Notes under the pieces: generated by a model
What the model saw: only the letters and a program-made list of their open reading frames with translations
What the model was told of the DNA's origin: nothing
Database searches by the model: none
Made by a program: the position numbers and the translations under genes
Assembly: GCF_001758195.1 (NCBI RefSeq)
Contig: NZ_MASR01000001.1
Span: 1,364,001 to 1,428,000 of the forward strand
Length of the DNA stretch: 64,000 bases
Direction: 5' to 3'
From: Pseudohongiella acticola
GTDB lineage: Bacteria > Pseudomonadota > Gammaproteobacteria > Pseudomonadales > Pseudohongiellaceae
Part shown: piece by piece, positions 28,863 to 63,520 of the stretch
Layout: every line of letters starts with the position of its first letter
Numbering within the stretch: the first letter of the stretch is position 1

Positions 28863-28920
28863 GTCTTGTTACCTGTACTGATATAATGGAAATAGAAACC
28901 TGGAGATAAAACCAGCCATA

Positions 28921-28956
28921 AAAAAAGGCTGCTCCGGTCAGGAAGCAGCCTTCTTT
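28921..28956 (-). terminator. Intrinsic terminator after the first copper-protein gene
   Basis: On the minus strand AAGGCTGCTTCC pairs with GGAGCAGCCTT around a short loop and is followed by six T residues. It lies about 40 bases past the stop of the gene that ends at 28994. Confidence 0.88.
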
Positions 28957-28993
28957 CTACGGTCTGCTTATCGAATCAGCTTACTAACTTACC

Positions 28994-29941
28994 TTATTCG
29001 GGCAGGTCTGTGTAAGAAAAATAGCCGATAAACATCTCTTCCCAGCTTTGCGGGCCGCTAACTGCGGGCACTGTCGGGTCCGGGTTGCCCGGGTTGTATT
29101 CGGAGTTGTCGAACAGGCCCTCCACAACTACCCGTGAACCCGCAGGCAGCACCATGGGTTCGTCCATTCGGTAAGTGGGCTGCCATGCGAAGTTGTAATC
29201 GGCCACATTGATGATGTTTTCCACGGTGTTATCCGGGTAGATCACACGGGCAGACATGGCTTTGCCGCGATAATGCATGTGGGCTCGGAAGCCATGCAAA
29301 ACGATGTCATCTTCAAACACATGGCTGGCGGCCATTTCGTGGTTCATGTCACCCGGTGGAATTGCCAGATCACGGGCGGACACAGAATGCGTGTGGAACT
29401 CGAGGTCTGGCGTTTCGTTTTCATCATAGAACCACATGCCGACTTTGGTGTTGTCGACAGTTTCCTGACCAAACGATGTGTAGTGAACACTCATACGCAG
29501 GGCCGAACCGACCGGCACCTTGATGCCCGTATTGGTGGGGAATTCAGTCGCATATTCTTTGCCCGGCGCATAACCTTCGAGGAATTCACGGCGAGGATCG
29601 TTATCGGCCTCGTCGATGGTGCCTTCGTTGTTCTGGTCATCGGCCACCACATAGGACAACAGATGGTGCAATACCCGCTTGTCGCCGGGGATGAACTGAA
29701 CGGCTTTGACCCATTTTTCTTCGCCGAACTCCAGCGGAATAACCGTGTTGATGTAATCAATGACACCGGTTGCCGGCACTGCAAATGGGGGTACTTCAAC
29801 AATATGATCAGGTGCGGAACCATCATGGGTCCACTCGCTGGCGGGGGGCTGGATCTGGGTCAGTGGATCAACGCCGGCCTGGGCCTGCAAGCCCCAGACC
29901 GCAGTCAGCACGAGTGCTGCGGACAATGTGGTTTTTTTCAT
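28994..29941 (-). CDS. Exported PHM-like type-II copper monooxygenase-fold protein, paralog 1
   Basis: A 315-residue protein with a signal peptide (cleavage near AQAGVDP, residue 22). The mature protein has the spaced ligands expected of the peptidylglycine/dopamine monooxygenase copper fold: His92-His93 in VLHHLLSYVV and His153 in MSVHYTSFG for one copper; His221 and His223 in FRAHMHYRGKAM and Met303 in SWEEMFIGY for the other. Two sister genes lie upstream, and all share the framework DHIVEVP, QFIPGDKR, EGYAPGKEYATEFP and WQPTY. The start at 29941 follows CAGGAGCC; a short in-frame extension to 29959 is less likely. It has its own terminator, and its promoter region closely matches that of paralog 3. 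The family assignment is from motif spacing; substrate is unknown. Confidence 0.8.
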   Translation of the reverse strand: MKKTTLSAALVLTAVWGLQAQAGVDPLTQIQPPASEWTHDGSAPDHIVEVPPFAVPATGVIDYINTVIPLEFGEEKWVKAVQFIPGDKRVLHHLLSYVVADDQNNEGTIDEADNDPRREFLEGYAPGKEYATEFPTNTGIKVPVGSALRMSVHYTSFGQETVDNTKVGMWFYDENETPDLEFHTHSVSARDLAIPPGDMNHEMAASHVFEDDIVLHGFRAHMHYRGKAMSARVIYPDNTVENIINVADYNFAWQPTYRMDEPMVLPAGSRVVVEGLFDNSEYNPGNPDPTVPAVSGPQSWEEMFIGYFSYTDLPE

Positions 29942-30046
29942 TATTACGGCTCCTGTCACAACCTGTGAGGATGCGCGGCCACGTTAAGGCCGCGATGCTG
30001 TTAATTTTTATTATGTTCTGCATACAAACCGCCTTGCATTATTCAT

Positions 30047-30107
30047 GATCGTAAACCAGTCAATCGCCTAAGACAATATGGCACCCACCCTAATTGCAAC
30101 AAAGTGT
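30047..30107 (-). promoter_or_regulatory. Promoter module of paralog 1, shared with paralog 3
   Basis: On the minus strand ACACTTTGTTGCAA (30107-30094) supplies a -35-like TTGCAA. Seventeen bases further is a -10-like TTGTCT (30076-30071), and 12 bases after that the motif TGGTTTACGATC (30058-30047). The 14-base and 12-base blocks recur identically before paralog 3 at nearly the same spacing (35 versus 36 bases between them). The downstream block sits where an operator or the start of the transcript would be. Confidence 0.6.
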
Positions 30108-30160
30108 TACTCCACTATTGACAAGAATATCGCCAGAACCAGACCAGCTAAACCGATGTC

Positions 30161-30195
30161 AAAAAAAAGCGCCCCTATTCAGGGACGCCTTTTTT
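30161..30195 (-). terminator. Intrinsic terminator after paralog 2
   Basis: On the minus strand GGCGTCCCT and AGGGGCGC pair around GAAT with one G-U pair, followed by eight T residues. It is the second of two hairpins after the paralog 2 stop. Confidence 0.85.
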
Positions 30196-30196
30196 G

Positions 30197-30223
30197 ATGC
30201 CTGGACAGCGTCTGTCCAGGCAT
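30197..30223 (-). other. Perfect 12-bp hairpin in the 3' untranslated region of paralog 2
   Basis: ATGCCTGGACAG (30197-30208) pairs perfectly with CTGTCCAGGCAT (30212-30223) around a three-base loop. It lies between the stop codon and the intrinsic terminator and may protect the message 3' end or act with the terminator. Confidence 0.7.
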
Positions 30224-30252
30224 GGGCCAAGACCTTGAGGTCCTGGCTGGAC

Positions 30253-31203
30253 TTACATATCGGTGTAAGAGAAGTAACCGATAAACATCTCTTCCCAGCT
30301 CTGCAGACCACCCAGCGCCGGTACCGTTGGATCGGGTACACCCAGGTTGTACTCAGAGTTATCAAACAGACCCTCCACGACAACGCGTGAACCGGCCGGA
30401 ATCACCATCGGCTCTTCCATCTGGTAAGTTGGCTGCCAGGCAAAGTTATAGTCAGCCACATTGATGATTTCTTCTGACGTATTGTCAGGATAAATCACTC
30501 GTGCGGCCATTGCCTTGCCACGGTAGTGCATGTGAGCACGGAAACCACGCAGCAGGATGTCGTTCTCAAACACATGCGTTGCTGCCATCTCGTGATTCAT
30601 CGCGCCTGGCGGAATCACAATATTTTCTGTGCGGTTGCCTGGTGACACCGAGTGCGTGCGGTATTCCAGTTCAGGCTGGTCATTCTCGTCAGCGAACCAC
30701 AGACCCACACGGGTGTTGTCCACGGTTTCCTGACCGAATGAAGTGTAGTGAATGCTCATGCGCAGCGCGGAGCCTGTTGGCACCTTGATACCAGTGTTCT
30801 CGGGGAACTCAGTGGCATACTCCTTACCGGGCGCATAACCTTCCAGGAACTCACGACGCGGATCGTTCACCGCCTCATCAATCATGCCTTCGTTGTTGGC
30901 CGTATCTTCAACTACGTAGCTCAACAGATGGTGAAGCACGCGCTTGTCGCCAGGGATAAACTGAACGGCCTTGACCCAGCGCTCTTCTTCAAACTCAAGC
31001 GGAATCACGGAGTTGATGTAATCAATCACGCCCGTGGCTGGCACCTGAAAGCTGGGCACCTCAACGATATGGTCGGGCGCTGTGCCGTCGTGCATCCACT
31101 CACTCTGGGGTGGCTGAACTTCAGTCAACGGATCGACACCGGCATGGGCGAGGCCACTTGCGGCAATTGCCACTGCAGCCGTTAGAGTCGTCTTGATTTT
31201 CAT
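30253..31203 (-). CDS. Exported PHM-like type-II copper monooxygenase-fold protein, paralog 2
   Basis: A 316-residue sister of the proteins encoded at 28994-29941 and 32638-33597. The signal peptide ends near GLAHAGVDP (residue 21). Copper ligands by position are His91-His92, His152, His224, His226 and Met307. Between the two copper domains it has an extra four-residue insertion (SPGNRTENIVIPPG), and it lacks the LPE ending (it ends SYTDM). GAGAGG precedes the ATG at 31203; a GTG six bases earlier is unlikely. Its upstream region does not carry the promoter module shared by the other two, so it is probably controlled differently. It lies directly downstream of the redoxin-cytochrome gene, with a terminator between. 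Confidence 0.8.
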   Translation of the reverse strand: MKIKTTLTAAVAIAASGLAHAGVDPLTEVQPPQSEWMHDGTAPDHIVEVPSFQVPATGVIDYINSVIPLEFEEERWVKAVQFIPGDKRVLHHLLSYVVEDTANNEGMIDEAVNDPRREFLEGYAPGKEYATEFPENTGIKVPTGSALRMSIHYTSFGQETVDNTRVGLWFADENDQPELEYRTHSVSPGNRTENIVIPPGAMNHEMAATHVFENDILLRGFRAHMHYRGKAMAARVIYPDNTSEEIINVADYNFAWQPTYQMEEPMVIPAGSRVVVEGLFDNSEYNLGVPDPTVPALGGLQSWEEMFIGYFSYTDM

Positions 31204-31364
31204 AAGCACCTCTCACGGGTTCAAAGCCAATCAGAATGATGGCTTCGTGAACTTTCTTCATGATGGTCGGTATACTGCTTAATTACCGATTTTATAGTTT
31301 GTTGTACCCCGATCCTACTCCAGAAATACGCGGCTTACAAGGATAGAAAGCCCTTTAAAAACGC

Positions 31365-31400
31365 AAAAAGGCCGTCTCGTTTTCACCAGACGGCCTTTTT
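31365..31400 (-). terminator. Intrinsic terminator after the redoxin-cytochrome gene
   Basis: AAAAAGGCCGTCT and AGACGGCCTTTTT form a near-perfect 13-bp inverted repeat with A- and T-tracts on both sides, so it can stop transcription on either strand. It lies 20 bases past the stop of the gene that ends at 31421. Confidence 0.92.
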
Positions 31401-31420
31401 AATCAATCACTTATCATGAT

Positions 31421-32284
31421 TCAGTCGCGCGGCGAACCGGCGTTGATCCAATGGATCAGCTTCTGACGTTCTTCGGTCGGGATATTGCCCGAGTTTTTGA
31501 AGCTTTTCACGGCAGGGTCAACCTGCATTGGCGGCATACGGTTAGTCATGATCACTTCACGAATCATCGGGCTCCAGCCCTGAATCATCATGTGGCTGTT
31601 CATGGCGAACGGTCCGATACCACCTTCAACGTGACAACCCACACAGCGCTCGATCAGAATCGGAGCGATTTCGGTTTCGTAGTCAGGGGCCTCAGCCACG
31701 TACTGATCGGCAACCGGGAAATCCAGCGCGCAACCTTCGGCCTCTTCCATGTCTACCGTGACAGTATCCATCTGACGTGAATCAGCGCCATCGGCAACAA
31801 TGGCTTCCAGCGTCTGACCCAGCGGCGCTCGTGCCCACTGACCTGGCATCGGACCACGGTACAGGATATTCATGCGAACCGGATCCACAACCACAACCTG
31901 ACCGGCCTGAGTCACACCCAGCGCGTTGGCAACCAGCTGCGCATCATCGTCCATGATAGGGAAATCGTAGTTCCAGACTGCTTCTTCAGCACGGATGTCG
32001 GCGCGCTCGTCATCTACCGATGAGTTCAGCATCAGGAAACTGACGCCACGGTGATCCCAGTTAGTGCGCAGCTGCTTGTAGCGCGCAATGTTTTCCTGGT
32101 TCATGGAACAGCCTGACGCCTGCGACACAATAACCACAGCCTTGTTGAACGCGTATTTGCTCAACTGGTGGGCCTTGCCGGTGTCGTCGATCAGGGTGAA
32201 GTCGCCTACGCGCTCTGGCGCAGCGTGTGCGTTAATACTGAGTGCGGCAGCTGCTAACAGTGCCATCCAGCTAATTTTCTTCAT
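31421..32284 (-). CDS. Exported redoxin-cytochrome c two-domain protein
   Basis: A 287-residue protein with a signal peptide (MALLAAAALSINAHA). The first domain (about 23-175) is a thioredoxin/AhpC-like redoxin starting VGDFTLIDDTGKAHQL. It keeps only one active-site cysteine (Cys59 in SQASGCSMNQ) where thioredoxins have CxxC. The second (about 200-287) is a small cytochrome c: CVGCH (Cys214, Cys217, His218) binds haem, and Met250 in NRMPPMQVDP is the likely axial ligand. It ends LIHWINAGSP. In families I recall, the same two domains are fused to a copper type-II monooxygenase domain like the three encoded around this gene, which suggests it feeds electrons to them. The start at 32284 follows GAGGGT. 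Confidence 0.85.
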   Translation of the reverse strand: MKKISWMALLAAAALSINAHAAPERVGDFTLIDDTGKAHQLSKYAFNKAVVIVSQASGCSMNQENIARYKQLRTNWDHRGVSFLMLNSSVDDERADIRAEEAVWNYDFPIMDDDAQLVANALGVTQAGQVVVVDPVRMNILYRGPMPGQWARAPLGQTLEAIVADGADSRQMDTVTVDMEEAEGCALDFPVADQYVAEAPDYETEIAPILIERCVGCHVEGGIGPFAMNSHMMIQGWSPMIREVIMTNRMPPMQVDPAVKSFKNSGNIPTEERQKLIHWINAGSPRD

Positions 32285-32637
32285 GATGAACAAACCCTCA
32301 TACTCTCTCTGGATAATTCTGCGTTACGTCAACCTTAATATGGGTGATGACGAACGACGTTATATTATTGTTCTGTCTTGTAGATTACAGCAATCAGAAT
32401 ACAACAGATTATTTGCAACAAACCACAGACATCTCGTATGAATTGCCTGTGCCTATCACCTGTCACTCACTCTCTGACCGCCAAGTATACTGTATTCGTG
32501 CCGCTATTTCTTAATCTGGCGCAAACTTATGACAGTTTAGGACACTTATCACACACAAACAAAAAGGGCTGCTTCTCAGGGAAGCAGCCCCTTTTTATGT
32601 TGTGCTGCTCAATCAATTACTTACAAACAGCTGACAC
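32285..32637 (-). other. 353-base intergenic region between paralog 3 and the redoxin-cytochrome gene
   Basis: AT-rich and without a gene. It contains the terminator of paralog 3 (32561-32596). About 129 bases before the redoxin start, TTGCAACAAA (32413-32422) repeats the core of the promoter block found before paralogs 1 and 3, but without the second 12-base motif. Confidence 0.6.
32561..32596 (-). terminator. Intrinsic terminator after paralog 3
   Basis: On the minus strand AAAAAGGGGCTGCTTCC pairs with GAAGCAGCCCTTTTT around a short loop, with a T-tract. It lies 42 bases past the paralog 3 stop. Confidence 0.92.
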
Positions 32638-33597
32638 TTATTCAGGCAGGTCAGTGTAGGAGAAGTAACCGATGAACATTTCTTCCCAGCTCTGCAGGCC
32701 GCCCATGGCATCCACGGTTGGATCAGGCACACCCAGGTTGTACTGAGAGTTGTCAAACAGACCTTCTACAACAACGCGTGAACCGGCTGGCAGTACCATT
32801 GGCTCGTCCAGCTGGTACGTTGGCTGCCATGCAAAGTTGTAGTCAGCTACGTTGATGATGTCCTCAGACGAGTTGTCCGGGTACACAACGCGCGCACTCA
32901 TGGCTTTACCACGGTAGTGCATGTGAGCACGGAAACCGTACAGCAGGATATCGTCCTCGAACACGTGTGAAGACGATGCTTCGTGGTTCATGGCGCCCGC
33001 AGGGATTTCGATCTGGTTCATCGGCGTTGCAACTGAGTAAGTGTGGAACTCGTACTCAGGCGTCTCGTTTTCATCAGCAAACCACAGACCAACACGGGTC
33101 GCGTCAGTTGTTTCCTGACCGAAAGACGTGTAGTGAATGCTCATACGCAGAGCTGAACCTTCAGGAACCTTGATGCCTGTGTTTTCGGGGAACTCTGTTG
33201 CGTATTCTTTACCTGGAGCATAACCTTCCAGGAATTCACGACGCGGATCGTTAACTGTTTCGTCGAGCATGCCTTCGCCAGCATCGGGCGTATCAGCAAC
33301 AACGTAGCTCAACAGGTGGTGAAGAACGCGCTTGTCACCCGGGATGAACTGAACCGCTTTCACCCACTTCTCTTCGCCGAATTCCAGAGGAATAACGGAG
33401 TCGATGTAGTCGATAACACCGGTTGCAGGAACATTGAAGCTAGGCACTTCAACAATGTGGTCTGGCGCAGAACCATCGTGGAACCACTCACCGTCCATTG
33501 GCTGAACTTGAGTCAGTGGGTCAACACCGGTAGCCGCGTTAGCCTGAAAGCTTACTGCAGCCGCCATAGCGAGCATAGCAATACTGGTCTTCTTCAT
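32638..33597 (-). CDS. Exported PHM-like type-II copper monooxygenase-fold protein, paralog 3
   Basis: A 319-residue protein with a signal peptide ending near FQANAATGVDP. Copper-ligand candidates are His93-His94, His155, His225, His227 and Met307, in the same motifs as its two sisters. It is most like paralog 1, including the SYTDLPE ending. GGGAGGA precedes the ATG at 33597, so an upstream in-frame extension to 33666 is rejected. Codon choice looks more uniform than in neighbouring genes (many GTT, GCA, CGT), which together with the strong ribosome site and terminator hints at high expression. It shares its promoter module with paralog 1. Substrate and true copper content are unknown. Confidence 0.82.
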   Translation of the reverse strand: MKKTSIAMLAMAAAVSFQANAATGVDPLTQVQPMDGEWFHDGSAPDHIVEVPSFNVPATGVIDYIDSVIPLEFGEEKWVKAVQFIPGDKRVLHHLLSYVVADTPDAGEGMLDETVNDPRREFLEGYAPGKEYATEFPENTGIKVPEGSALRMSIHYTSFGQETTDATRVGLWFADENETPEYEFHTYSVATPMNQIEIPAGAMNHEASSSHVFEDDILLYGFRAHMHYRGKAMSARVVYPDNSSEDIINVADYNFAWQPTYQLDEPMVLPAGSRVVVEGLFDNSQYNLGVPDPTVDAMGGLQSWEEMFIGYFSYTDLPE

Positions 33598-40542: not shown

Positions 40543-41049
40543 ATGATTATTTATCAGACAACAATCGGCAAAGGGTACAACCCGCTTTTTCCACTAAACA
40601 GCTTACTACCAGCGAAGATTCAGACGGTCTCACTCAACCCCGTTTACAATACGACCAATAGGGTCCTGGCCTGCGCAAATATAATAATTTCCATTTGCTT
40701 GATCATTTTCTTATCCATGATTATTGCATCGGACAGGGTTGTCCCCGCTGCAGGTATTGCGCTGCTAACCATTACCGTTTTTTCGTGGCATCTGGCGTCA
40801 GCGTTGGTACGCAACAAGAACAGCATCAAAGCCCACCAAAACGTGCACAGCAAGGACTTTGTATTTTGCTGGTACACCTTTGAATGGATAGTGGTTTTTT
40901 TGTCGACCACACTGCTTTTTCTCTACCTACGGAGCATTGAACCGCCACTGCTCCCCGATAGTTTGCTCGCGCTCCTCGCCAGTCTCTCCGCAGCAATGCT
41001 CTTCCTACCCCTTGCTCAAGGATCAAGATACTTACTAACGCGCAAATAG
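40543..41049 (+). CDS. Four-helix membrane protein, candidate bacteriocin immunity protein
   Basis: A 168-residue protein of no recognised family. Four hydrophobic segments are clear: about residues 43-65 (VLACANIIISICLIIFLSMI), 67-90, 107-128 (FCWYTFEWIVVFLSTTLLFL) and 138-158. A 40-residue polar N-terminus precedes them and a short basic tail (RYLLTRK) follows. Codon use is more AT-rich than in flanking genes. GAGGAG lies 14 bases before the ATG, a longer spacing than usual. Small polytopic proteins next to bacteriocin genes often give self-immunity, and its place between the same inverted repeats supports that guess. Confidence 0.55.
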   Translation: MIIYQTTIGKGYNPLFPLNSLLPAKIQTVSLNPVYNTTNRVLACANIIISICLIIFLSMIIASDRVVPAAGIALLTITVFSWHLASALVRNKNSIKAHQNVHSKDFVFCWYTFEWIVVFLSTTLLFLYLRSIEPPLLPDSLLALLASLSAAMLFLPLAQGSRYLLTRK

Positions 41050-61889: not shown

Positions 61890-61972
61890 CAGATATATCC
61901 CCTTGATTTATAAACAATTATTTTAGCGATTTTCATCGTGATTTGGCCATGGTACCGCAAAGGGTTCCACAA

Positions 61973-63520
61973 ATGGCAAATTTCATTTGGAAAAATCGTC
62001 ACGGGCGCTATTATTTCCGCGTCCGGATTCCAGCACGCTACCTTGCCCACTTTGGCAATAGCTCAGAAGTGCGTAGTCCATTACATACTAGTGACAGGAC
62101 GACTGCCAAGCGATTGGCGAGGGCGTATATGGTCGCTTTCGATAATCAACTGAATGGACTCGATGAGATGAAAAAAACTCGCAACAAACCTCTGAGGACG
62201 GATTACACGGTTAGCTTCAATGTCACAAAGGACGACGAGTGGACACTGGACATCGACATGCCTGACGAAGAGCACACCAAGATGGGCGATGAGGCTGTAG
62301 CGAGAATAATCAAGTCCAACCTTGATGAGTTAGAACAACGAAGGGATGAGTCATACAGTGGTGAGAGATCTAATCCACGTCCGCTGCCCGGCCGCGCTGC
62401 GAGACTTCCACTCCTACGCGACGCAGTCGAGGACTACCTAAGCTGCAAAACCTGGGACAGCCAAACTACCAAAGTGCAACAAACAGCAACTCTCAGACTT
62501 CTGACAGATTTCTTTGGCGACCGCCCTATAGATGATATTAAGCGAAGCGAGGCCAACCTATTCGTTGAAAAGCTGTCTTTGCTGCCCCCTAGAATGCACG
62601 GCGTTAATTCGCCCTACAAAGCCCTCTCGATGCAAGAAGTGATCAAGCAACACAAAGGCGAAACCATATCTCCTAAGACCCAAAAAGACCACTTAACACG
62701 GACGAAGTCGTTCTTTACTTGGCTGTCACTCAGGTACGACGACCTGCCTGACAGCCCATTTAAAGACTTAAAGCTTAAAGACCGGCGTGTTGGCCGACGA
62801 AGGCACGCATTTTCAGACGACGATCTGATGCGGGTTTTCACAAGCTACCTCTACAACCAAGATCCGTGGCCAGCGCAAAAGCAAGGGAAAGAGCCATCCA
62901 AGTTCTGGATACCCCTCATACTTGCTTACACCGGCTGTCGACTAAACGAGGCCTGTCAACTATATGTAGACGACATAATTACAGACGCTCAGGGTAAGAC
63001 TGCTCATTTTTACTTGAACGAAGACCGACCCGATCAAAGCATAAAAGGTAGGCTCCCTCGCAACGTTCCAATTCACAAAGCACTAATCGATGCAGGGTTT
63101 CTAGAATATGTAGCTGCAATGCGCCGGAAAGCAGAGCCGCGCCTATTCCCCGAGCTTATATATACAGATAAAGGTGACGGATACGGCAAAGCTATCGGGG
63201 AATTCTGCCGAAGCTTCTTCAAGTCCTTAGGTGTGAAGGGTACTCCCCACTGCTTTAGGCATAATGTCGTTGAGCGGCTAACCAAAGCAAATGTCACTAA
63301 AGACCTCATCCAGTCCATAGTTGGGCATATTGGCCAAGGCAGCACCGATGTCACGGTGAAAAGTTATGGAGGTGGAGAGTTCGACTTCAAACAAAAGCTC
63401 ACGGCATTGCACAAACTTAGATACCCTTTTGACGACCTAGTGATCACATACGCTGATTTCGAGCAGCGGACCAAACGAGCATACCGCTTGAATTCACAGA
63501 AGCCTGGGAGTAGTCCGTAA
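61973..63520 (+). CDS. Tyrosine recombinase/integrase of a tRNA-Leu-associated island
   Basis: A 515-residue site-specific recombinase. The N-terminus (FIWKNRHGRYYFRVRIPARYL) is the small DNA-binding motif found in many island integrases. A core-binding domain follows (about 140-255, PLLRDAVEDYLSCKTWDSQTTKVQQTATLRLLTDFFGDRPIDDI). The catalytic domain has the first arginine in YTGCRLNEACQL, HCFRHNVVERL (His-x-x-Arg), GHIGQGS and the nucleophile tyrosine in VKSYGGGEF. Its base composition is more AT-rich than that of the neighbouring core genes. The start at 61973 is chosen; an ATG at 61949 is possible. Transcribed away from tRNA-Leu, it marks the left end of an integrated element extending past the window. 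Confidence 0.9.
   Translation: MANFIWKNRHGRYYFRVRIPARYLAHFGNSSEVRSPLHTSDRTTAKRLARAYMVAFDNQLNGLDEMKKTRNKPLRTDYTVSFNVTKDDEWTLDIDMPDEEHTKMGDEAVARIIKSNLDELEQRRDESYSGERSNPRPLPGRAARLPLLRDAVEDYLSCKTWDSQTTKVQQTATLRLLTDFFGDRPIDDIKRSEANLFVEKLSLLPPRMHGVNSPYKALSMQEVIKQHKGETISPKTQKDHLTRTKSFFTWLSLRYDDLPDSPFKDLKLKDRRVGRRRHAFSDDDLMRVFTSYLYNQDPWPAQKQGKEPSKFWIPLILAYTGCRLNEACQLYVDDIITDAQGKTAHFYLNEDRPDQSIKGRLPRNVPIHKALIDAGFLEYVAAMRRKAEPRLFPELIYTDKGDGYGKAIGEFCRSFFKSLGVKGTPHCFRHNVVERLTKANVTKDLIQSIVGHIGQGSTDVTVKSYGGGEFDFKQKLTALHKLRYPFDDLVITYADFEQRTKRAYRLNSQKPGSSP

What the first reader, a model, noticed from the sequence alone, without database searches (positions are those of the whole stretch)
28994..33597. Three-copy PHM-like copper protein locus with a redoxin-cytochrome gene
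Three exported paralogs keep every residue expected to bind the two coppers of peptidylglycine/dopamine-type monooxygenases (HH, H, HxH, M). They sit around one exported redoxin-cytochrome c protein that could supply electrons. Three strong terminators plus good ribosome sites suggest high and separately controlled expression. This is the best candidate for an undescribed system: a periplasmic copper oxygenase set, or a copper-binding or redox-defence set.
Basis: partly seen in the sequence, partly recalled or inferred. Interest (0 to 1): 0.85.

Follow-up and report, generated by a model that had tools for sequence, protein, structure and literature searches.

The report
Split heme-driven copper oxygenase gene set
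Four neighbouring genes of a bacterium close to Pseudohongiella encode three closely similar exported copper proteins that resemble animal enzymes of the noradrenaline and peptide-hormone pathways, plus one exported heme protein that probably feeds them electrons; related genes carry the two parts as one fused protein, which makes the pairing credible although what it oxidises is unknown.

Summary
Three exported paralogs (79-82% identical) keep all six copper ligands of the dopamine beta-hydroxylase (DBH)/PHM class and flank one exported redoxin-cytochrome c gene (RED). New here: the four-gene set is the split form of a wider family of single proteins with domain order redoxin, cytochrome c, PHM-like. 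The same genome holds eight such fusions and two divergent cytochrome c-PHM proteins. The order PHM-RED-PHM-PHM is seen in 13 of 13 related loci, two cut by contig ends and two with a fragmentary last gene; another genus has a two-gene PHM-RED form. Ligands and heme motif are near-invariant, the redoxin cysteines are not. One fused paralog lineage has lost copper ligands, apparently in steps, while keeping the heme.

Best reading: a periplasmic dicopper oxygenase powered by a dedicated c-type cytochrome, as in cytochrome-driven LPMOs, split so that several copper subunits share one donor. Electron transfer, oxygenase activity and substrate are inferred, not shown. Ten paper searches listed no description of the family. 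New variant of a known kind.

The parts
32638..33597 (-). PHM1: exported DBH/PHM-like copper protein, 319 aa from ATG at 33597; ligands H93, H94, H155 (CuH) and H225, H227, M307 (CuM)
31421..32284 (-). RED: exported redoxin-cytochrome c protein, 287 aa from ATG at 32284; proposed electron donor
31631..31645 (-). CxxCH heme c motif of RED
   Evidence: sequence; 60 of 60 RED domains
31535..31537 (-). Met of the MPP motif of RED, probable axial heme ligand
   Evidence: sequence; 60 of 60 RED domains
32108..32110 (-). redoxin cysteine 1 of RED (Cys62, numbered from the TTG at 32293)
   Evidence: 38 of 60 RED domains
31730..31732 (-). redoxin cysteine 2 of RED (Cys188)
   Evidence: 32 of 60 RED domains, never without cysteine 1
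30253..31203 (-). PHM2: second copper protein paralog
   Evidence: 253 of 313 aligned residues identical to PHM1
28994..29941 (-). PHM3: third copper protein paralog
   Evidence: 249 of 314 aligned residues identical to PHM1
32561..32595 (-). terminator-like hairpin after PHM1 (-23.2 kcal/mol)
31364..31401 (-). terminator-like hairpin after RED (-24.8 kcal/mol)
   Evidence: not listed by the stricter scan
30164..30193 (-). terminator-like hairpin after PHM2 (-18.1 kcal/mol)
   Evidence: not listed by the stricter scan
28916..28962 (-). terminator-like hairpin after PHM3 (-26.2 kcal/mol)
   Evidence: not listed by the stricter scan

Best explanation
The locus makes a periplasmic type II dicopper oxygenase of the DBH/PHM class in three closely similar copies, and one shared c-type cytochrome-redoxin protein that reduces them. 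SHOWN by sequence: export signals (by eye), both complete ligand sets, the heme motif with a conserved Met, conserved gene order, and close kinship to a family in which donor and copper domain are one chain. INFERRED: the split form arose from a fusion; the heme passes electrons one at a time to the copper sites in place of ascorbate; the copper domain uses O2 to hydroxylate a C-H bond of an unknown periplasmic substrate; the redoxin thiol pair is an accessory (for example peroxide clean-up or protection of the copper site), since many relatives lack it; splitting freed the 1:1 ratio, so that three copper subunits, each with its own terminator, run on one donor.
For: Six ligands: 87 of 91 intact, three of the four exceptions being cut or broken ORFs. 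DBH is the only PDB hit of the profile, E 7.9e-6, ligands in register over both domains. Fusion: RED and PHM share one ORF in eight other genes of the genome and in records titled Verrucomicrobia, Planctomycetota and Hydrogenedentota. CxxCH and the MPP Met are in 60 of 60 RED domains. Stand-alone PHM sequences of these loci form one clade of 54 rows (SH-aLRT 99) inside the fused ones; split RED is one clade of 24 rows (97); both trees are quick ones. The split point is the domain boundary: RED ends in WINAGSPRD and mature PHM1 begins with GVDPLT, matching WIDAGAPRG...DPLT in fusions. Order PHM-RED-PHM-PHM with the same flanks in 13 related loci, as far as contigs reach. 194 of 196 columns conserved within each paralog class are the same in all three, which points to dosage. 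Terminator-like hairpins of -16 kcal/mol or stronger follow 48 of 52 complete gene ends in the window and L018-L030 (my tally), against 15 of 300 random 120-nt windows and 19 of 400 random 223-nt windows. Precedent: a bacterial c-type cytochrome domain reduces and activates copper LPMOs (PMC8981238, abstract).
Against: No structure, copper content, electron transfer or activity was tested. The N-terminal PHM Pfam model was not hit. The window PHM domains hold no Cys, whereas eukaryotic PHM has disulfides (recalled). A fused paralog lineage keeps the heme without CuH, and in one genus without a full CuM site either, so heme and copper need not serve one purpose in every member. Locus L031 has a stand-alone PHM and no RED found on its 5.6-kb contig. 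Related loci are not independent counts. The stricter scan lists only one of the four hairpins, on a background of 9 sites found against 5.1 expected. Nothing in the flanks names a substrate.
Confidence: 0.58

Rival explanations
1. A periplasmic copper-binding set: the PHM-like proteins scavenge, store or buffer copper, and the redoxin-cytochrome keeps it reduced (Cu(I)) for hand-over; no oxygenase chemistry.
For: Several closely similar copies suit a binding role. Redoxin relatives include thiol-disulfide proteins.
Against: Exactly the two sites of DBH are kept, and no other His of PHM1 is conserved above 59% (54 of 91). Keeping the full HxH plus Met set across phyla is more than storage would seem to need (inference). 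The redoxin cysteines are dispensable. No copper transport or chaperone family was hit among the five flanking genes scanned.
Confidence: 0.15
2. A redox-defence set: RED is a thiol peroxidase coupled to cytochrome c, and the copper domain removes superoxide or peroxide.
For: AhpC-TSA match of RED above cut-off. Cysteine pattern CC 32, first only 6, second only 0, neither 22 of 60, as expected of a working thiol pair where present. All 24 split REDs seen keep both: 16 and 8, three of the 8 being identical to earlier rows.
Against: 22 of 60 RED domains lack both cysteines but keep the heme motif; their PHM domains keep the copper ligands except L010 and the broken L066. Defence alone would not obviously need 2-13 such matches per genome (inference).
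Confidence: 0.12
3. True peptide amidation as in animals: the PHM proteins hydroxylate C-terminal glycines of exported peptides and a PAL-type lyase completes the reaction.
For: Same enzyme class. An exported NHL propeller that matches the PAL domain of PAM (3fvz, E = 5.7e-11) lies 3.6 kb from the fused paralog in L009.
Against: That propeller matches other NHL proteins better (6d69, 2.7e-20). Three places in the genome match it at E <= 1e-10, none inside the window. The only PDB relative found is DBH; PHM did not appear even at E <= 10. Peptide-binding residues were not tested.
Confidence: 0.05
4. The three copies are specialised for different substrates rather than dosage copies.
For: The PHM1 and PHM3 groups are supported clades kept across the genus (98 and 96).
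Against: Only 2 of 196 class-conserved columns differ between the classes, neither a ligand; the PHM2 class is not one clade. Copy number drifts: four PHM genes in L073, a fragmentary last copy in L027 and L028.
Confidence: 0.1

Closest known systems
Dopamine beta-hydroxylase / PHM class (copper type II, ascorbate-dependent monooxygenases)
   Same: Two-domain match by profile alignment, HH plus H for CuH, HxH plus M for CuM, exported or secretory location (signals by eye).
   Different: Bacterial, no Cys in the window PHM domains, fused or paired with a redoxin-cytochrome c, expanded to many paralogs; use of ascorbate not tested.
Cytochrome-driven lytic polysaccharide monooxygenases (Cellvibrio japonicus Cbp2D domain CjX183 with LPMO; PMC8981238, abstract seen)
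   Same: A c-type cytochrome domain as electron source for an extracytoplasmic copper oxygenase.
   Different: Unrelated copper fold (histidine brace, one copper; recalled); here the donor is fused to, or encoded beside, a DBH/PHM-like domain with two copper sites.
ResA/TlpA-type thiol-disulfide proteins and AhpC-TSA redoxins
   Same: Sequence family of the N-terminal half of RED.
   Different: Cysteines Cys62 and Cys188 rather than CxxC, both absent in 22 of 60 relatives, and a heme c domain attached.

Membership tests
Copper type II ascorbate-dependent monooxygenase (DBH/PHM) | CuH site: adjacent His pair plus a third His | tested here: met
   Present in all three window proteins and aligned with DBH. 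PHM ligands H107, H108, H172 from passages of PMC6123673.
Copper type II ascorbate-dependent monooxygenase (DBH/PHM) | CuM site: HxH plus Met | tested here: met
   Present in all three and aligned with DBH. PHM ligands H242, H244, M314 from passages of PMC6123673.
Copper type II ascorbate-dependent monooxygenase (DBH/PHM) | Homology over both domains | tested here: inconclusive
   C-terminal Pfam model above cut-off in 3 of 3, N-terminal model not hit at E <= 1; 49-sequence profile aligns with DBH over profile positions 29-289 of 292.
Copper type II ascorbate-dependent monooxygenase (DBH/PHM) | Two coppers about 11 A apart in a double jelly-roll fold | not testable with these tools
Copper type II ascorbate-dependent monooxygenase (DBH/PHM) | O2- and ascorbate-dependent hydroxylation | not testable with these tools
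   Needs purified protein.
Peptide-amidating monooxygenase (PAM) | PAL lyase fused or encoded beside PHM | tested here: not met
   No match to the PAL-like propeller inside the window; three places elsewhere in the genome, one 3.6 kb from a fused paralog. Flanking genes are of other families.
Class I-type c cytochrome domain (RED) | CxxCH plus a distal Met | tested here: met
   60 of 60 RED domains of more than 200 aa; six shorter RED hits were dropped beforehand. Pfam PF13442 itself is below cut-off.
Thiol peroxidase / redoxin (RED) | AhpC-TSA match with a conserved cysteine pair | tested here: inconclusive
   Model above cut-off in the window protein; pair present there but in only 32 of 60 domains in all; activity untested.
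Fused redoxin-cytochrome c-PHM family (no description in the papers listed) | Same domains, with the split form nested within the fused form | tested here: met
   the RED tree leaves the nesting of split RED open at one fork.

The most novel reading that the evidence does not exclude
A heme-driven, ascorbate-independent branch of the DBH/PHM enzyme class exists across several bacterial phyla. Pseudohongiella has uncoupled donor from enzyme so that several copper subunits run on one cytochrome, and also carries a sister lineage in which the copper sites are dismantled in order (CuH first, then CuM in another genus) while the heme stays, meaning that the heme domain can serve CuM directly, or has a second job.
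Probability: 0.35. Interest if true: 0.72.

Novelty: new variant of a known kind. Interest (0 to 1): 0.52.

Why it matters
DBH/PHM enzymes are known mainly from animals, with ascorbate as donor (recalled; for PHM also in passages of PMC6123673). A bacterial branch with its donor built in would give a self-contained system in which electron delivery to CuH and CuM can be measured one electron at a time, and natural variants without CuH would bear on the debated route of electrons between the two coppers (debate recalled). It would also give a function to a large set of exported redox proteins: 2 to 13 RED matches in each of 37 of 59 genomes sampled from one bacterial family.

Tried and rejected
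Structure prediction and fold comparison: not available; profile alignment with DBH was used instead.

Codon adaptation as a test of high expression: ribosomal protein genes scored a mean of 0.758 on an index built from themselves, lower than many ordinary genes; RED ranked 1, PHM2 9, PHM1 12 and PHM3 15 of 45 window ORFs. The index does not discriminate and is not used.

Peptide amidation: considered because of an NHL propeller near one fused paralog; rejected as main reading.

Fission by a simple break: rejected, because fusions run RED then PHM while split loci run PHM then RED. A tandem fused pair (seen in L075-L077) that lost its first RED and last PHM would give the order, but the RED tree leaves the placing open, so this stays a guess.

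'CuM-only oxygenase' for the L010 lineage: attractive for the own genus, but 11 orthologues of another genus have lost CuM residues too, so a pseudo-enzyme reading is at least as good.

Literature: ten searches of open-licence PubMed Central papers; several listings were capped (for example 25 of 198, 20 of 344, 15 of 473). No title or abstract start listed describes a redoxin-cytochrome c-PHM protein. Four papers were opened: passages of PMC8812541, PMC6123673 and PMC8371827, and the outline with abstract of PMC8981238; the rest were seen as listings only.
Full report
WHAT IS THERE. Four minus-strand genes lie at 28994-33597: PHM1 (32638-33597), RED (31421-32284), PHM2 (30253-31203), PHM3 (28994-29941). 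All begin with a Sec-type signal (read by eye). The PHM ORFs pass the Pfam cut-off for Cu2_monoox_C; RED passes it for AhpC-TSA and carries CxxCH. NCBIfam gave no match above its cut-off for the four window proteins and none at E <= 0.01 for two fused relatives, L035 and L010. The three PHM proteins are 79-82% identical in pairs (253 of 313, 249 of 314, 256 of 311). Each gene is followed by a terminator-like hairpin, four in all; the stricter consensus scan lists only the one after PHM1.

IS THE COPPER-SITE CLAIM RIGHT? In an alignment of 91 PHM-domain sequences (four fragments under 200 aa were dropped; near-copies not removed) the counts are H97 91, H98 90, H159 90, H229 91, H231 90 and M311 88 of 91 (numbers are of the aligned fragment, equal to H93, H94, H155, H225, H227 and M307 from the ATG of PHM1). 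87 of 91 keep all six. Three exceptions are ORFs cut at contig ends or broken (L023, L024, L066) and one, L010, is a true replacement. No other His of PHM1 is conserved above 59%. A profile of 49 of these sequences finds one PDB sequence, dopamine beta-hydroxylase 4zel, E = 7.9e-6, over profile positions 29-289 of 292; in the printed alignment HH, H, HxH and M fall on the matching residues of DBH. A single-sequence search found nothing. Copper geometry could not be tested because structure prediction is off.

THE DONOR. In 60 RED domains (six hits under 200 aa dropped) CxxCH and the Met of MPP are invariant, 60 of 60. The redoxin cysteines are not: both in 32, the first alone in 6, neither in 22, the second alone in 0. 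So heme is core, and the thiol pair is optional and behaves as a unit. All 24 split REDs examined keep both (16, eight more, three of which are identical to earlier rows).

ROSETTA STONE. The window's own genome (3.61 Mb, 8 contigs) holds eight further ORFs in which RED and PHM are one protein (PHM domain 38-41% identical to PHM1, one short piece 44%), plus two divergent cytochrome c-PHM proteins without the full redoxin. Fused relatives occur in records titled Gammaproteobacteria or Pseudomonadales, Verrucomicrobia(les), Planctomycetota and Hydrogenedentota. In a sample of 59 genomes of the family, 37 have RED at E <= 1e-20, 2 to 13 matches each; all 12 of the own genus and 6 of 11 of genus g5 have as best match a RED in a frame of stand-alone length; the 22 without a match are genera g2, g3 and g8. 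In 274 genomes sampled from the class, 3 besides the own genome have a match at E <= 1e-25, in frames of 627-693 aa, a length that fits fusions.

THE SPLIT FORM. Order PHM-RED-PHM-PHM is seen in 13 of 13 related loci, L018-L030; two are cut by the contig end (L023, L024) and two have only fragments of the last PHM (L027, L028). Their record titles are Pseudohongiella or unclassified Gammaproteobacteria, except L027, titled Rhodoferax, a metagenome bin. Flanks match the window (PPDK with NfeD and SPFH or lipase genes before; an NADH:flavin oxidoreductase after), as far as contigs reach. L073 has one more PHM. Genus g5 has a two-gene PHM-RED form with 54-92 nt between the genes. L031 has a stand-alone PHM and no RED found on its contig. 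In quick maximum-likelihood trees the stand-alone PHMs of these loci are one clade of 54 rows (SH-aLRT 99) within fused sequences, nearest to a fused copy of genus g4 (83, weak); split REDs are one clade of 24 (97), beside two fused clades at an unresolved fork. Fused order is RED then PHM, split order is PHM then RED, so more than a break is needed. The ends of the split proteins meet at the domain boundary of the fusions.

WHY THREE COPIES. Of 196 columns conserved at 90% or more within each of the three paralog classes (42 sequences; three rows identical to others left out), 194 are the same in all. This favours dosage. Hairpins at -16 kcal/mol or stronger follow 48 of 52 complete gene ends in the window and L018-L030 (my tally), against 15 of 300 random 120-nt windows, 19 of 400 of 150 nt and 19 of 400 of 223 nt, the longest stretch scanned. 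The loci are kin, so the 52 are not independent. A hairpin also lies between PHM and RED in the seven two-gene loci scanned (-13.7 to -24.1), which could let PHM exceed RED.

A NATURAL CONTROL. The fused paralog L010 has CuH residues H-S-R in place of H-H-H. Its orthologues in 15 of 15 own-genus genomes (own included) are all H-S-R with CuM H, H, M intact. One genome of g7 has H-S-K with CuM intact; 11 of g5 have H-S-R and CuM Q-H-(I, T or V). All 27 keep CxxCH and the axial Met. Six fused sequences outside this group, scored the same way, are all H-H-H-H-H-M. Orthology here rests on best match, not on a tree, and the order of loss is inferred from who has lost what. Still, ligand conservation elsewhere is not inertia: where a lineage was freed from it the copper sites decayed while the heme did not.

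MECHANISM. Best reading (0.58): cytochrome-driven dicopper oxygenase in the periplasm. Shown: anatomy, ligands, heme motif, fused relatives. Inferred: fusion-to-split history, electron flow from heme to copper, O2 chemistry, unknown substrate, dosage purpose of the split. A c-type cytochrome that reduces and activates bacterial LPMOs is a working precedent (PMC8981238, abstract). PHM ligands and the roughly 11 A copper distance come from passages of PMC6123673.

COMPARISON AND NOVELTY. It works like a DBH/PHM enzyme with the donor of a cytochrome-driven LPMO. Membership in DBH/PHM is met on ligands, inconclusive on the N-terminal domain model, and untested on structure and activity. [quoted passage not shown] A paper on North Sea relatives of this bacterial family discusses monooxygenases; the words copper and redoxin do not occur in its main text (PMC8371827, passages and word counts). 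Ten searches of open papers, some with capped listings, showed no description of the family.

Noticed in passing
L010:6595-8382 (-) and orthologues L081-L107: Fused paralog lineage with CuH replaced by H-S-R or H-S-K (16 with CuM intact) and, in 11 orthologues of another genus, CuM residues also lost, heme motif kept in all 27: a probable pseudo-oxygenase in the making.
   Followed up: yes
L009:8754-9947 (+): Exported NHL propeller with a match to the PAL domain of PAM, 3.6 kb from a fused redoxin-cytochrome-PHM gene; it matches other NHL proteins better.
   Followed up: partly
L012:6074-7429 and L013:5844-7502: Two divergent cytochrome c-PHM proteins without the full redoxin, each directly followed by an exported protein of 308 or 316 aa with no Pfam match.
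   Followed up: partly
L016:6480-8531 and L017:6391-8439: Two fused paralogs have an extra C-terminal stretch that reads like EF-hand (calcium) motifs; seen by eye only.
   Followed up: no
L073:5367-10970: Five-gene variant of the locus with four PHM copies around one RED.
   Followed up: partly
window 61943-63520 (+): Integrase (DUF6538 plus Phage_integrase) with the second lowest codon index of 45 window ORFs; could mark a mobile element.
   Followed up: no
window 40543-41049 (+): ORF of 168 aa with no Pfam match and the lowest codon index of 45 window ORFs.
   Followed up: no
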